Source: Agromyces sp. Leaf222 (GTDB taxonomy: Bacteria > Actinomycetota > Actinomycetes > Actinomycetales > Microbacteriaceae). Taken from it: 64,000 bases of DNA. The stretch spans positions 196,441 through 260,440 of the forward strand of contig NZ_LMKQ01000003.1 in the NCBI RefSeq assembly GCF_001421565.1. The letters are read 5' to 3'. Each line of letters begins with the position of its first letter. Positions within the stretch are counted from its first letter, which is position 1. Under the pieces are notes generated by a model, which had not been told where the DNA came from, searched no databases, and saw nothing but the letters and a program-made list of their open reading frames with translations. This document shows positions 1-19,552 of this stretch, piece by piece. Position numbers and translations under genes: made by a program.

Positions 1-131
1 ACGACGTCGGCGCCGAGGTCGGCGAGGAGCTTCGCGGCGTACGGACCCGAGATGTACTGGCCGAGCTCGATGACGCGGATGCCGGCGAGCGGGCCCGCCT
101 CCTCGGCGGCGTCGCGGTGGGGCGTGTTCAT
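1..131 (-). CDS. CoA-transferase family III (CaiB/BaiF), N-terminal part only
   Basis: The first 43 residues of a minus-strand protein are visible; the gene runs off the left edge. After an acidic leader the residues GIRVIELGQYISGPYAAKLL are the characteristic N-terminal strand-helix of class III CoA-transferases, which move CoA between carboxylic acids in catabolic pathways. The ATG is at 129-131. The gene lies 45 bases downstream of the MDR dehydrogenase on the same strand, so the two probably form one transcript. Family assignment is good. The acid substrate cannot be read from this fragment. Confidence 0.8.
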   Translation of the reverse strand, partial: MNTPHRDAAEEAGPLAGIRVIELGQYISGPYAAKLLADLGADV

Positions 132-176
132 CTGGTGCGGTCCTCTCGGAGGGTTCTGACGCGGTCGGGGCGGCGG

Positions 177-1181
177 TCACACCACATCGATGACCACCTT
201 GCCCCTCGGCGAGGCACCGAAGCCGCGGTAGGCGCCCACGATGTCGTCGAGCGGATGCCGCGAGCCGATGATCGGCGCGATGGTGCCGTTCTGCACGTGT
301 CGCAGCGCACGCCGCACGTGCTCGTAGTCGGCGCTCGCGACGCCGCGGAGCTGCTTGCGCTTGAGGTACAGGTCTCGGGCGTCGAGTTCGAGCCTGGCGT
401 CGACGGAGGCGGAGCAGAAGACCGCGCGGCCTCCCCAGCCGAGCGCCGCGACCCCGGCGGCGATCGTGCCGCCGTGGCCGCTCACGTCGATCGCGACGTC
501 GAACGCGTCGAGGTCGGCGAGTCGGCCTGCGAGCCTCGCGGCGTCGGGGGCGACGATCTGCTCGACCCCGTCGAGGCGGGGGAGTTCGGCACGCGAGGCG
601 GCGACGACCGAGGCGCCCAGGTGCCGGGCGTAGGCGACGGCCGCATGGCCGAGCGTGCCGCCCGCGCCGGTCACGAGCACCCGGTCGGCGGCGGTGACGG
701 CCGCGGCGTCGAACGCGTTGATGACGATCGGCAGGCTGTGCACGGTCGCGCTGGCCGTCGCGGCGTCGAGGTCGTGGCGGTCGAACGCGTTGCGTGAGGG
801 CACGACGACGAACTCGGCGGCACCCCCGTCGCGGTGCACGCCGAGCACGGACTGCGCCGGGCAGTCCGCCTCGTGGCCCATCGCGCATCGCGCGCAGTCG
901 CCGCACGGGATGTTCGGCTTGACGACGACGGCCTGGCCGAGTCGTCGCGCGTCGACGCCCTCGCCGAGCTCGACGATGATGCCGGCGGGGTCGAGTCCGA
1001 GCACGCGCGGCAGGCGGGCGGCACGGCCGGGACCGAGGCCGGCGATGACGTTGAGGTCGAGCTGGTTGAGGCTCACCGCCTCGACGGCGATGAGCACCTC
1101 GCCGGATCCGGGCACCGGGCGCGCGATGTCCCCGACGCGCAGGCCCTCGAGTCCACTGGCTTGCAGTTGCGCCGCTCGCAT
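177..1181 (-). CDS. Zinc-lobe MDR alcohol dehydrogenase/quinone reductase family protein
   Basis: 334-residue medium-chain dehydrogenase/reductase. The structural-zinc lobe is complete (CGDCARCAMGHEADC, four cysteines), and a Rossmann fingerprint VTGAGGTLGHAAV lies mid-protein. The usual catalytic-zinc ligands appear to be missing: where alcohol dehydrogenases have a Cys near residue 40 this protein reads LNQLDL, and the usual GHE reads GLD. It is therefore more likely a zinc-independent reductase or enoyl/quinone reductase than a classical alcohol dehydrogenase. The ATG at 1179-1181 was chosen because residues encoded further upstream do not look like this family. The gene is divergent from the binding protein at 1482 and has an operator palindrome 48 bases upstream. 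Confidence 0.8.
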   Translation of the reverse strand: MRAAQLQASGLEGLRVGDIARPVPGSGEVLIAVEAVSLNQLDLNVIAGLGPGRAARLPRVLGLDPAGIIVELGEGVDARRLGQAVVVKPNIPCGDCARCAMGHEADCPAQSVLGVHRDGGAAEFVVVPSRNAFDRHDLDAATASATVHSLPIVINAFDAAAVTAADRVLVTGAGGTLGHAAVAYARHLGASVVAASRAELPRLDGVEQIVAPDAARLAGRLADLDAFDVAIDVSGHGGTIAAGVAALGWGGRAVFCSASVDARLELDARDLYLKRKQLRGVASADYEHVRRALRHVQNGTIAPIIGSRHPLDDIVGAYRGFGASPRGKVVIDVV

Positions 1182-1228
1182 CCGCACCCCGTTCCCGTCT
1201 CGGTCACGAACTTCGATGTCGTGATTTC

Positions 1229-1243
1229 TGGATACCGTATCCA
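1229..1243. promoter_or_regulatory. Operator palindrome, GGATAC type, upstream of the MDR gene
   Basis: TGGATACCGTATCCA is a perfect 7+1+7 palindrome, preceded by TTTC. It lies 48 bases upstream of the MDR start, in the divergent gap shared with the binding protein at 1482. A close relative is at 1400 and related GGATCC-centred sites are at 9585, 17747 and 18737. The likely binder is the GntR/FCD regulator encoded at 17925-18698, by inference from location and symmetry. Confidence 0.65.
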
Positions 1244-1399
1244 ATCTGCAGCGACGTGTCCACCGATCCGCCGTCAGGCGGCGACATCCGACCTCACCCG
1301 GTGGCCGGTCGCCTCGTGCCGACGGATGCGCTTCGCAGCGCCGCAATCCAACCGTAACCATCGGCTTCACCCGGAATCATGGACACTTCGAGGGATTTT

Positions 1400-1412
1400 G
1401 GATACGGTATCC
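1400..1412. promoter_or_regulatory. Operator palindrome, GGATAC type, upstream of the binding-protein gene
   Basis: GGATACGGTATCC is a perfect 6+1+6 palindrome preceded by ATTTT, 69 bases upstream of the binding-protein ATG. It shares core and flank with the site at 1229. Two sites in one divergent gap suggest that both transcripts are controlled together. Confidence 0.65.
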
Positions 1413-1481
1413 GTCAATTCGCACGAGGCCCCGTACTGTGCGGCCGGCCCCGTTCGAGACACCCGCTGAGAATGGAGAGTC

Positions 1482-17824: not shown

Positions 17825-17921
17825 GCCGGCCTCGCCGGTCGAGTAGGCGCGCCGGCGCCGTATCGAGACCAGCACCCCGCAAGGCCTCGATACGCTCCGC
17901 TACTCGACCGGCCTCGCCGGC
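17825..17921. repeat. REP-like nested palindrome
   Basis: The arms GCCGGC-N4-CCGGTCGAGTAG and CTACTCGACCGG-N4-GCCGGC enclose a second stem, CGTATCGAG/CTCGATACG. The phrase TCGATACGCTCCGCTACTCG is, from memory, a common intergenic repeat in Microbacteriaceae. It begins 3 bases after the gntR stop and could end that transcript. Confidence 0.65.
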
Positions 17922-17924
17922 CGC

Positions 17925-18698
17925 TCAGCGCGGTGCGCGCACCCGCGACGCCGGCGCCGCGGCATCCGCGGCCTTCGACTCCGCCTCGAGCAGCTCGAGC
18001 ACGGCATCGCGCACGCCGACGAGGTGGTCGCGCAGCACGTCGACGGCGCGGTCGGCATCACCGGAGGCGACGGCCTCGATGAGCTGCTCGTGCGTGTGGC
18101 TGTGCTCGGCGTCGCCCACGAGGCGCCAGCCGAGCACGTAGCGGCCGACCTTGAGGCGCAGCTGCTCGATCATCTCCCAGAGCACGGGCCGCTGCTCGGC
18201 GTCATAGAGCTCGGCGTAGAACTCGGTGCGGGCGTCGACGAAGTCCGAGCCCTCCTGCTGGCGGTCGGCGGCCTTGCCGAGCTCGCGCAGGCGGGCGACG
18301 CGATCGTCGGTGAGCGCGGCCATCGTGAGCCGGAGCGCCTCCACCTCGAGGAGCACGCGGATGTCGTAGACCTCCTTCGCCTGCGCCGGCGAGAGCGACT
18401 TCACCACGGCCCCACGGCGGTCGTGGAACTCGACGAGCCCGTCGGCCTCGAGCTGGATCAGCGCCGAGCGCACGGGCAGCCGCGAGACGCCGATCAGCTC
18501 GGCGAGCGTCTCCTGCCGCAGCTTCTGCCCCGGCAGCAGGGCGCCGTTCAGGATCGCGTCCTTGAGGATGTCGTAGACCATGACGCCGACCGAGCGGTAC
18601 CCGGTCGCGTGCTGGCCTGCGAGTTGCTTGAGGGCGGCGGCCCCGCCGTCGCCCGATGCCGCCGTGGTGCCCCCGGGTGCTGCGTTCTGCGCGCTCAT
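17925..18698 (-). CDS. GntR-family transcriptional regulator, FCD subfamily
   Basis: 257 residues. A winged helix-turn-helix (YDILKDAILNGALLPGQKLRQ, then LAELIGVSRLPVRSALIQLE) is followed by an all-helical FCD effector domain with IRVLLEVEALRLTM and a late HEQLIEAVASGD holding the metal/ligand histidine. FCD regulators usually repress catabolic operons and are released by a carboxylate or pathway intermediate. An operator-like palindrome lies 39 bases upstream of its own start, so autoregulation is likely. It is the best candidate to bind the TGGATCCA-type sites across 1229-18754. The first 35 residues are low-complexity and may be over-called. Confidence 0.88.
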   Translation of the reverse strand: MSAQNAAPGGTTAASGDGGAAALKQLAGQHATGYRSVGVMVYDILKDAILNGALLPGQKLRQETLAELIGVSRLPVRSALIQLEADGLVEFHDRRGAVVKSLSPAQAKEVYDIRVLLEVEALRLTMAALTDDRVARLRELGKAADRQQEGSDFVDARTEFYAELYDAEQRPVLWEMIEQLRLKVGRYVLGWRLVGDAEHSHTHEQLIEAVASGDADRAVDVLRDHLVGVRDAVLELLEAESKAADAAAPASRVRAPR

Positions 18699-18736
18699 GG
18701 ATCCCGAACGTAGCGGATAACCGCCCCGATCACCCC

Positions 18737-18754
18737 GTTCTGGATCCAAAAAAC
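18737..18754. promoter_or_regulatory. Operator palindrome, GGATCC type, upstream of gntR
   Basis: GTTCTGGATCCAAAAAAC shares TTCTGGATCCAAAA with the site at 17747. It lies between the second cofE stop (18773) and the gntR start (18698), the position expected for autorepression. Confidence 0.65.
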
Positions 18755-18772
18755 ACGAAGTGCGTCGAAGAG

Positions 18773-19552
18773 CTACAGGTCGCGCCGCAGCGGGCCCTCG
18801 TTCTGCGACTCGTCGAAGCCGTCTCGATACCCGTTGTCGTACGCCTCGTCGGCGCCCACGCGGAACAGGTCGCGCTCGGCCGGGCGCTGGATGCTGCGCG
18901 CCCCGGGCAGGTCGAGCGCCCCCACGTACCGGCCGAGTCCGCGCACGACGGCCACGGGGATCCCGGCGGACTTGCCCTTGACGAGCTCGGCGGCGCCCGC
19001 GATCTCGTCGGCCACGCACGGCATCGTGACCGCGAGCGGCTTGCCCGTGGCATCCGTCGCCCCGCGCAGGTCGTCGAAGACGTGCACGCCCGCCGCGCCG
19101 ATCGCGATGTCGGTCTGCCCGTCGCGCCACGGCCGGCCGAGCGTGTCCGAGAGGATCACGCCGATGCCGAGCCCGGTGAGCGAGCGGATGCCGGTGGCGA
19201 GCGCCCGCGCCGACGCGTCGGGGTCGATCGGCAGCAGCAGCACCGTGCCGTCGGGGGCGTTCGAGGCGTCGACCCCGGCCGCGGCGCCGATGATGCCCTG
19301 GCGGTTCTCGACGATGCGGGTGACGCCGCCCTCGTACTCGCGCGTCGCGACGACGCGCACCGTCTCGTCGGTGATCGCCTGCTCGCGATCGGCCGCGGCA
19401 ATGACCCGCCCCTCGGCCTTCGACACGATCTTCGAGGTGATCACCAGGATGTCGCCCTCTTCCAGGCTCACCGCCCCGACGATGATCGCGGCGAGGTCGT
19501 CGCCCTTGCCGATCTCGGGCATGCCCTCGACGCCTTCGATGCTGAACCCCAC
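18773..19552 (-). CDS. cofE: Coenzyme F420-0:L-glutamate ligase (second copy)
   Basis: 259 residues, close to the usual CofE length. It shares long blocks with the copy at 15637 (SKIVSKAEGR, GGVTRIVENRQG, LSDTLGRPWR-GQTD-AIGAAGVHV) but differs enough to be an old paralogue, not a fresh duplication. The GTG at 19550-19552 starts just before the conserved GVEGMPEIGKGDDL. It lies 74 bases upstream of gntR on the same strand. Two ligases may differ in glutamate chain length or in regulation: this copy has no operator palindrome that I can see directly upstream. Confidence 0.9.
   Translation of the reverse strand: MGFSIEGVEGMPEIGKGDDLAAIIVGAVSLEEGDILVITSKIVSKAEGRVIAAADREQAITDETVRVVATREYEGGVTRIVENRQGIIGAAAGVDASNAPDGTVLLLPIDPDASARALATGIRSLTGLGIGVILSDTLGRPWRDGQTDIAIGAAGVHVFDDLRGATDATGKPLAVTMPCVADEIAGAAELVKGKSAGIPVAVVRGLGRYVGALDLPGARSIQRPAERDLFRVGADEAYDNGYRDGFDESQNEGPLRRDL

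What the first reader, a model, noticed from the sequence alone, without database searches (positions are those of the whole stretch)
1..19552. Complete-looking F420 supply-and-use island: F420-0 import, tail addition, reduction and F420-dependent catabolism
Seen: an F420-0-type ABC cassette (9740-12716), two cofE, cofC, fgd, two further LLM oxidoreductases, a cyclic amidohydrolase, a Ser-less alpha/beta hydrolase, RidA, an MDR reductase, a CoA-transferase and an NMT1-type importer, all within 20 kb. Known: the cassette has been proposed, from gene neighbourhood only, to import F420-0, and fgd is the standard source of F420H2. Inference: a dedicated system in which scavenged or locally finished F420 drives reductive attack on an imported N-heterocycle, followed by ring hydrolysis, with parallels in gene types to the Rut pyrimidine pathway (LLM, RidA, hydrolase). 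I know of no described pathway with this gene set.
Basis: partly seen in the sequence, partly recalled or inferred. Interest (0 to 1): 0.88.

Follow-up and report, generated by a model that had tools for sequence, protein, structure and literature searches.

The report
FO-salvage and F420-dependent catabolic gene island
A bacterium of the genus Agromyces has no recognisable gene for making FO, the first half of the cofactor F420, but keeps the later steps beside a cofactor-type importer, which suggests that it lives on FO made by its neighbours and spends the cofactor in a breakdown pathway whose substrate is still unknown.

Summary
The window lies in Agromyces. FbiA/CofD, the enzyme that uses FO, lies 4.5 kb outside the window on the same contig. 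No FO synthase was found in 58 of 60 Agromyces genomes, this one included, while FbiA is over its cut-off in 55 and the "F420-0" binding protein in 57. Among 88 cofD genomes of the order, importer and FO synthase almost exclude each other: 27 importer only, 48 synthase only, 1 both, 12 neither (Fisher p = 2.6e-12). So the cassette here most likely brings in FO, not F420-0; a dual importer is not excluded. The catabolic half is a real unit: hydrolase, cyclic amidohydrolase and LLM are consecutive in 65 of 69 loci, mostly Actinobacteria. In Agromyces the amidohydrolase is beside the importer in all 23 genomes with the ortholog, and between fbiA and importer in the 22 with both on one contig. All 48 core genomes tested (of 69 loci) have CofE. 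The substrate is unknown; a nitrogen heterocycle is the best guess. Rut membership is not supported.

The parts
1..131 (-). N-terminus of a class III CoA-transferase; the rest lies left of the window (L005:17279-18571), followed there by amidohydrolase_2, LigB and LigA genes
   Evidence: PF02515 335 bits, PF04909, PF02900, PF07746; position
177..1187 (-). MDR/zinc-type dehydrogenase (start uncertain)
   Evidence: PF08240/PF00107; in 32 of 69 related loci
1482..2573 (+). NMT1/THI5-like substrate-binding protein
   Evidence: PF09084; in 29 of 69 loci
3135..3548 (-). RidA-family protein
   Evidence: PF01042; only 12 of 69 loci, so not core
3557..4396 (-). ABC permease A of the NMT1 importer
   Evidence: overlaps the gene before it by 4 bases (coordinates)
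4393..5226 (-). ABC permease B of the NMT1 importer
5223..6068 (-). ABC ATPase of the NMT1 importer
6140..7138 (-). LLM-class oxidoreductase (core gene 3)
   Evidence: PF00296; best NCBIfam TIGR03619 152.6, below cut-off 166.9; nearest solved structures are annotated as methylenetetrahydromethanopterin reductases
7141..8553 (-). cyclic amidohydrolase of the dihydroorotase/hydantoinase type (core gene 2; start uncertain)
   Evidence: H59, H61, K143, H185, H241, H244, D316 and R63 of HVHTREPG in 70 of 70 sequences; nearest PDB 1gkr
8550..9515 (-). alpha/beta hydrolase without a Ser nucleophile (core gene 1)
   Evidence: G[TS]GGTGGGN in 67 of 67; fold confirmed
9740..10765 (+). deazaflavin (FO or F420-0) binding protein of the importer
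   Evidence: TIGR03868 485 bits; 4mlz of Jonesia denitrificans, 318 bits
10762..11877 (+). importer permease (start uncertain)
   Evidence: TIGR03869 484 bits
11874..12716 (+). importer ATPase
   Evidence: TIGR03873 334 bits, below cut-off 372
13845..14879 (-). [quoted passage not shown]
   Evidence: TIGR03554 618 bits
14876..15643 (-). CofC-type guanylyltransferase
   Evidence: TIGR03552 88.7 bits, below cut-off 105
15637..16665 (-). CofE 1; the match to the FbiB-length model PRK13294 ends at position 258 of 449
   Evidence: TIGR01916 229 bits, cut-off 181
16662..17660 (-). LLM2, FGD-family oxidoreductase
   Evidence: TIGR03557 284 bits, over cut-off 210; TIGR03885 (FMN type) 305, below its cut-off 399
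17925..18677 (-). GntR-family regulator; a relative (35% or more) is near the core in 29 of 69 loci
18773..19552 (-). CofE 2
   Evidence: TIGR01916 236 bits

Best explanation
The island is a precursor-salvage and use system for F420. The three-gene cassette at 9740-12716 imports FO (7,8-didemethyl-8-hydroxy-5-deazariboflavin), which F420 producers shed into the medium. FbiA (just left of the window) and CofC add the side chain to give F420-0, the CofE proteins add glutamates, and FGD reduces F420 with glucose-6-phosphate. F420H2 then serves the FGD-family LLM2 and the catabolic LLM. These work with a cyclic amidohydrolase and a Ser-less alpha/beta hydrolase on a substrate brought in by the NMT1-type ABC importer, most likely a nitrogen heterocycle that is reduced and then opened at a lactam or imide bond. 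Shown: gene content, conservation, no recognised FO synthase, importer/synthase exclusion. Inferred: FO as substrate (about 0.6), F420 use by the catabolic LLM (about 0.65), N-heterocycle as substrate class (about 0.45).
For: FO synthase (TIGR03551) has no match at E 1e-3 in this 99.99% complete genome; a clear one is in only 2 of 60 Agromyces genomes, G032 and G033, which shows that the search can find it in this genus, and five more have only marginal hits, E 1.9e-4 or weaker. FbiA is over its cut-off in 55 of 60, the binding protein in 57 of 60. Order sample of 218: among 88 cofD genomes 27 importer only, 48 synthase only, 1 both, 12 neither, p = 2.6e-12. fbiA lies upstream of the binding protein on the same strand in 17 of 17 loci where the 1.5 kb flank holds it, in 11 with a candidate start within 250 bases; of the 22 importer-and-cofD genomes of other genera in the order sample, 11 have cofD within 5.5 kb, nine of these at 2.7-2.9 kb. 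FbiA pN/pS is 0.23-0.33 among four of five genomes compared, FGD 0.11-0.24. FO is the form found in culture supernatants (PMC11917521, PMC11104420, passages), and yeast without FO synthase makes F420 when fed FO (PMC10949242, passages). Catabolic core: consecutive in 65 of 69 loci; CofE over cut-off in 48 of 48 core genomes tested (I left out 21 of 69 loci: Agromyces, Microbacterium and one Solirubrobacter) against 110 of 218 in the order sample; 18 of the 43 loci that do not hold the importer have FGD (50%) or LLM2 (55%) relatives within about 10 kb (L127 and L128 are near-copies); of ten such neighbours tested 8 pass the FGD equivalog cut-off and all 10 the TIGR03557 cut-off. A molybdenum hydroxylase of the xanthine dehydrogenase type is near the core in 22 of 69 loci.
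Against: 22 of 50 importer genomes in the order sample lack cofD and cofH; in them FO could not become F420-0. Three Agromyces importer genomes, G005, G011 and G044, show no cofD (G011 has 840 contigs). PHSC20C1 has an Agromyces-type binding protein but no cofD, so the tree does not predict the substrate cleanly. Only two positions separate the groups by charge (168, 289) and many aromatic and basic residues are shared, which fits one common ligand. 12 cofD genomes have neither importer nor synthase. Fed yeast shows that FO can enter a cell slowly, with no dedicated importer mentioned in the passages. CofC evolves fast (pN/pS 0.36-0.96) and misses its cut-off. Only the CofH model was searched, not CofG; the genomes are related, so p overstates the case. 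The catabolic LLM misses the TIGR03619 cut-off; LLM2 scores higher on the FMN-type model TIGR03885 (305, cut-off 399) than on TIGR03557. No substrate was identified.
Confidence: 0.5

Rival explanations
1. The cassette imports F420-0 as the family name says; FbiA and CofC work on FO that enters by diffusion.
For: 22 importer genomes lack both cofD and cofH, and 21 of them have cofE; PHSC20C1 has the importer and cofE but no cofD. Yeast takes up enough FO to make F420, with low efficiency (PMC10949242, passages).
Against: In cofD genomes importer and FO synthase almost exclude each other, and fbiA lies beside the binding protein. If F420-0 came in, FbiA and CofC would be dispensable, yet 27 importer genomes without synthase keep cofD.
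Confidence: 0.15
2. The cassette is a broad deazaflavin importer that takes FO and F420-0 (and perhaps F420-n), and lineages keep or lose cofD and cofC according to what their neighbours release.
For: Many aromatic and basic residues are shared by binding proteins of cofD-plus and cofD-minus genomes; PHSC20C1 sits inside the Agromyces group.
Against: 11 of the 12 cofD-minus rows in the tree fall on one side of a branch, as if specificity had diverged.
Confidence: 0.22
3. The catabolic LLM and LLM2 are FMN enzymes and the F420 genes are beside them by chance of insertion.
For: LLM is below the TIGR03619 cut-off; LLM2 scores best on the FMN-type model TIGR03885, though below its cut-off.
Against: 48 of 48 core genomes tested have CofE; FGD or LLM2 relatives recur in 18 of 43 loci that do not hold the importer; no flavin reductase appeared among the island proteins scanned.
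Confidence: 0.3
4. Agromyces makes FO with an unrecognised synthase and the importer serves another compound such as a siderophore or corrinoid.
For: The cassette belongs to the BtuCDF/FecCD class; 12 cofD genomes lack both importer and known synthase.
Against: Importer and known synthase almost exclude each other in cofD genomes; nearness to fbiA.
Confidence: 0.1

Closest known systems
Putative F420-0 ABC transporter cassette (TIGR03868, TIGR03869, TIGR03873)
   Same: Same three gene families; binding protein and permease over their curated cut-offs.
   Different: The family was named (recalled, not from a call) for organisms most of which keep only CofE. Here FbiA and CofC are present and no FO synthase was found, so the expected substrate is one step earlier.
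Engineered yeast that makes F420 from fed FO (PMC10949242, passages)
   Same: No FO synthase; FO from the medium is finished to F420 inside the cell.
   Different: Laboratory construct; the passages mention no importer and call FO import inefficient. Here a dedicated importer is proposed in nature.
FO as a secreted precursor (Mycetohabitans-Rhizopus; FO in culture supernatants)
   Same: FO leaves producing cells (PMC11104420, PMC11917521, passages). The review PMC8498797 mentions a putative ABC exporter of the cofactor beside the Mycetohabitans (P. rhizoxinica) genes (passage).
   Different: Those are producers and export; here a user and import.
Reductive uric acid pathway with a putative F420-dependent LLM in Chloroflexota (PMC12507026)
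   Same: Xanthine dehydrogenase-type Mo enzyme, F420-type LLM as reductase, amidohydrolase (passages).
   Different: Its marker amidohydrolase is SsnA with YgeW/YgeX/YgeY; no island protein scanned was named so. Ours is of the dihydroorotase/hydantoinase type.
Rut pyrimidine pathway
   Same: Gene types LLM, RidA, hydrolase.
   Different: No RutA-level match, no flavin reductase among the island proteins scanned, RidA in 12 of 69 loci only.
Hydantoinase/dihydropyrimidinase cluster, present separately at L005:74-4486
   Same: ABC permease, LLM, cyclic amidohydrolase.
   Different: That one has a dihydropyrimidinase (TIGR02033 543 bits) and a TIGR03842 LLM; ours has 226 bits on TIGR02033, below the cut-off of 393.

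Membership tests
F420-0 ABC importer (TIGR03868/3869/3873) | binding protein over curated cut-off | tested here: met
   485 against 392.4
F420-0 ABC importer (TIGR03868/3869/3873) | permease over curated cut-off | tested here: met
   484.2 against 437.35
F420-0 ABC importer (TIGR03868/3869/3873) | ATPase over curated cut-off | tested here: not met
   333.7 against 372.4, still the best family by 93 bits
F420-0 ABC importer (TIGR03868/3869/3873) | host lacks F420 synthesis but for CofE (recalled basis of the name) | tested here: not met
   FbiA 307 bits, cut-off 257; CofC present, below its cut-off
F420-0 ABC importer (TIGR03868/3869/3873) | transports F420-0 | not testable with these tools
   no binding or transport data
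FO salvage (proposed) | no FO synthase in the genome | tested here: met
   0 matches to TIGR03551; CofG model not searched
FO salvage (proposed) | FbiA, CofC, CofE present | tested here: met
   CofC below its cut-off
FO salvage (proposed) | importer replaces FO synthase in cofD genomes | tested here: met
   27 importer only, 48 synthase only, 1 both, 12 neither of 88, p = 2.6e-12
FO salvage (proposed) | binding-protein group predicts cofD | tested here: inconclusive
   mostly, but PHSC20C1, G044 and G200 break it
FO salvage (proposed) | binds and transports FO | not testable with these tools
   no binding or transport data
[quoted passage not shown]
   618 against 420
Rut pathway | RutA (TIGR03612) cut-off | tested here: not met
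   FGD 41.3 and LLM2 21.7 against 498.3; not among the 25 best of 32 families for the catabolic LLM
Dihydropyrimidinase (Pyd) | TIGR02033 cut-off | tested here: not met
   226 against 393
Metal-dependent cyclic amidohydrolase | HxH, Lys, two His, Asp ligand set | tested here: met
   invariant in 70 of 70; ligand roles are recalled
Serine alpha/beta hydrolase | GxSxG nucleophile | tested here: not met
   no Ser at the elbow position; G[TS]GGTGGGN in 67 of 67

The most novel reading that the evidence does not exclude
Agromyces and several other actinobacterial lineages are natural FO auxotrophs: they have traded FO synthase for a dedicated ABC importer and finish F420 from FO released by neighbours, so FO is a shared vitamin of their communities. 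In some of them the importer is physically joined to a so far undescribed F420-dependent pathway, widespread in Actinobacteria and built on a Ser-less alpha/beta hydrolase, a carboxylate-reading cyclic amidohydrolase and an LLM reductase.
Probability: 0.45. Interest if true: 0.78.

Novelty: new variant of a known kind. Interest (0 to 1): 0.64.

Why it matters
If the importer carries FO, F420 joins the B-vitamin-like cofactors whose precursors are traded between bacteria, and a family now named for F420-0 needs a new or second name. It makes a simple test possible: does a culturable Agromyces need FO to make F420? The conserved core (65 of 69 loci) marks an F420-linked catabolic pathway for which my searches found no described substrate, with a hydrolase that lacks the Ser nucleophile in all 67 sequences aligned.

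Tried and rejected
Binding-pocket charge as a test of FO against F420-0: only positions 168 and 289 separate the groups and the direction is not what a loss of phosphate recognition predicts; dropped as indecisive. Binding-protein tree as a predictor: good but broken by PHSC20C1, G044 and G200; it holds 38 rows, namely the 30 of 50 order-sample importers for which loci were given plus 8 that I added. Structure search with the hydrolase: ordinary alpha/beta hydrolases, best 7qjm, no hint at the reaction. 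Structure of the binding protein: predicted and searched, best 4mlz of Jonesia denitrificans, ligand not visible to me. (PF01993, 0 matches) served only to place the window.

Literature. No paper in the held library holds TIGR03868, TIGR03869, TIGR03873 or 'F420-0 ABC transporter'. Searches around F420 salvage, uptake, auxotrophy and F420/amidohydrolase clusters listed no FO or F420-0 importer, but five listings were capped (25 of 108, 20 of 56, 15 of 16, 25 of 65, 10 of 14). I saw passages only of PMC8498797, PMC3288000, PMC11104420, PMC11917521, PMC12507026, PMC8571402, PMC12855090 and PMC10949242; none of those passages describes an FO or F420-0 importer. Subscription papers are mostly not held.

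Substrates considered from recall: riboflavin or lumichrome, nicotinate, isonicotinate, orotate; nothing tested favours one. The 3-hydroxyisobutyrate dehydrogenase-like gene at 12757-13668 was considered as a pathway step and rejected: 1 of 69 loci. Not done: a CofG search, a count of CofC across the order, a background count of FGD-family genes per genome.

Full report
What is in the sequence. The window is contig 3, 196441-260440, of a 4.43 Mb genome in 4 contigs, 99.99% complete. The genus is Agromyces: named contigs of the same lengths as those of genomes in the same genus group are A. subbeticus (213,461 bases, G057) and A. mediolanus (2,064,382 bases, G033). Three groups stand out. (a) Importer 9740-12716 on the + strand. 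(b) A catabolic run on the - strand from 9515 down: Ser-less hydrolase, cyclic amidohydrolase, LLM, ATPase, two permeases, RidA, with overlaps or gaps of a few bases apart from 71 bases after the LLM (coordinates; some starts are my choice); then the NMT1 binding protein on + and MDR, CoA-transferase, amidohydrolase_2, LigB and LigA on -, the last four mostly or wholly left of the window. (c) LLM2, CofE1, CofC and FGD, overlapping end to start on -, with a GntR regulator and CofE2 upstream.

The missing piece outside the window. FbiA/CofD lies at contig 3, 190860-191891, 4.5 kb left of the window. FO synthase (CofH model TIGR03551, which also finds fused FbiC) gives no match in this genome at E 1e-3. 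Across 60 Agromyces genomes, this one included, FbiA is over its cut-off in 55, the binding protein in 57, and a synthase-like protein in open frames of 843 and 893 aa occurs in 2; five more have only marginal hits, E 1.9e-4 or weaker. So the genus as a rule can turn FO into F420 but has no recognised way to make FO. Exceptions: G005, G011 and G044 have the importer and no cofD (G011 is in 840 contigs); G017 has neither; G021 has a cofD fragment only.

Importer against synthase. In 218 genomes drawn from the order, the binding protein is over its cut-off in 50, cofD in 88, cofH at E 1e-40 is in 51, cofE at E 1e-30 in 134. Of the 88 cofD genomes, 27 have importer without synthase, 48 synthase without importer, 1 both (G251), 12 neither; Fisher p = 2.6e-12. 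The genomes are related, so the p-value overstates independence. The 22 importer genomes without cofD all lack cofH, and 21 have cofE: these fit the family name, F420-0 import. In the tree of 38 binding proteins, 11 of 12 cofD-minus rows fall on one side of a well-supported branch, together with 3 rows whose cofD lies elsewhere in the genome, and the other 24 rows on the other side. But PHSC20C1 sits among Agromyces and has no cofD, and G044 and G200 also break the rule. The pocket comparison did not separate the groups. I therefore hold FO import as the best reading for Agromyces and the dual importer as the main rival.

Is FbiA in use? Among four of five Agromyces fbiA sequences pN/pS is 0.23-0.33, near CofE1 (0.21-0.26) and somewhat above FGD (0.11-0.24); the fifth, G041, is divergent (0.66-0.73) and lies in another arrangement. 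CofC is looser (0.36-0.96). fbiA is upstream of the binding protein on the same strand in 17 of 17 loci where the 1.5 kb flank holds it (58 loci looked at); 11 of these have a candidate start within 250 bases of the fbiA stop, four are farther or open to another gene between (L013, L014, L021, L028) and two are unclear (L026, L030). In the order sample 22 genomes of other genera have importer and cofD; 11 have cofD within 5.5 kb (nine at 2.7-2.9 kb), the other 11 lie farther off or on another contig.

The catabolic island. In 60 Agromyces genomes the amidohydrolase is found in 24: 23 orthologs of 83% identity or more and one 53% paralog elsewhere in G042. fbiA and binding protein share a contig in 55 genomes (one, G050, with a cut binding protein): 33 have them within 5.5 kb and 22 are 13.7-31.5 kb apart, and these 22 are exactly the ortholog bearers with both on one contig; the 23rd, G011, has the amidohydrolase next to the binding protein at a contig end. 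So the cluster sits at one place in the genus. Beyond it, 69 loci were found by the amidohydrolase; by their titles nearly all are Actinobacteria, and L131 and L132 are MAGs named only 'bacterium'. Hydrolase, amidohydrolase and LLM are consecutive on one strand in 65 of 69; exceptions L097, L104, L125, L132. In L104 an FGD-equivalog takes the LLM's place. Two surroundings exclude each other within the flanks held: a molybdenum hydroxylase of the xanthine dehydrogenase type in 22 loci, and the CoA-transferase, amidohydrolase_2, LigB set in 27, 21 and 17 loci, with no locus in both (one representative per Mo-hydroxylase family was scanned, each below the equivalog cut-offs). The importer is in 26 loci; of the other 43, 12 have an FGD relative and 6 an LLM2 relative.

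Why F420 rather than FMN. 48 of 48 core genomes tested have CofE over its cut-off (21 of the 69 loci left out), against 110 of 218 in the order sample; many of the 48 come from groups where F420 is common (recalled), so this is supporting, not proof. FGD-type neighbours pass the F420 cut-offs. The nearest solved relatives of the LLM are methylenetetrahydromethanopterin reductases, an F420 enzyme (cofactor recalled). Against: the LLM misses the TIGR03619 cut-off and LLM2 scores higher on an FMN-type model.

What the enzymes could do. The amidohydrolase has the full metal set and the Arg of HVHTREPG in 70 of 70 sequences; in dihydroorotase that Arg reads the substrate's carboxylate (recalled), so a lactam or imide with a carboxylate is likely. 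A Mo hydroxylase near the core in 22 loci fits ring hydroxylation next to nitrogen. A published parallel proposes an F420-type LLM as the reductase of a reductive purine pathway in Chloroflexota (PMC12507026, passages). The order of steps, the role of the Ser-less hydrolase and the substrate are inference.

Verdict.

Noticed in passing
L005:74-4486 (about 14-18 kb left of the window): A second, separate cluster with ABC permease, TIGR03842 LLM (598 bits), dihydropyrimidinase (TIGR02033, 543 bits) and a carbamoyl amidase-like protein (231 bits on TIGR03381, below its cut-off); possibly pyrimidine or hydantoin use.
   Followed up: partly
window 15637-16665: CofE1 matches the FbiB-length model PRK13294 only to position 258 of 449, so the reductase domain of FbiB is missing here; it may lie elsewhere, or CofC may use another substrate.
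   Followed up: no
G032 and G033 (L037, L038): Two Agromyces genomes have an FO-synthase-like protein in an open frame of 843 or 893 aa and still keep importer and FbiA; it lies far away on the same contig (G032) or on another contig (G033).
   Followed up: no
order sample: 12 genomes have cofD but neither importer nor recognised FO synthase; another FO source or a missed synthase.
   Followed up: no
L104:11383-12378: An FGD-equivalog follows the amidohydrolase where the LLM usually sits.
   Followed up: partly
window 12757-13668: A 3-hydroxyisobutyrate dehydrogenase-like gene between importer and FGD, kept in only 1 of 69 loci.
   Followed up: yes
L005:8450-12673: A 1407-aa protein with several near-identical long repeats and a hydrophobic, Arg-rich C-terminal end (seen by eye), just left of fbiA on the other strand.
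   Followed up: no
L003 (G041): This Agromyces has a divergent fbiA with the importer upstream of it, as if fbiA had been replaced.
   Followed up: no
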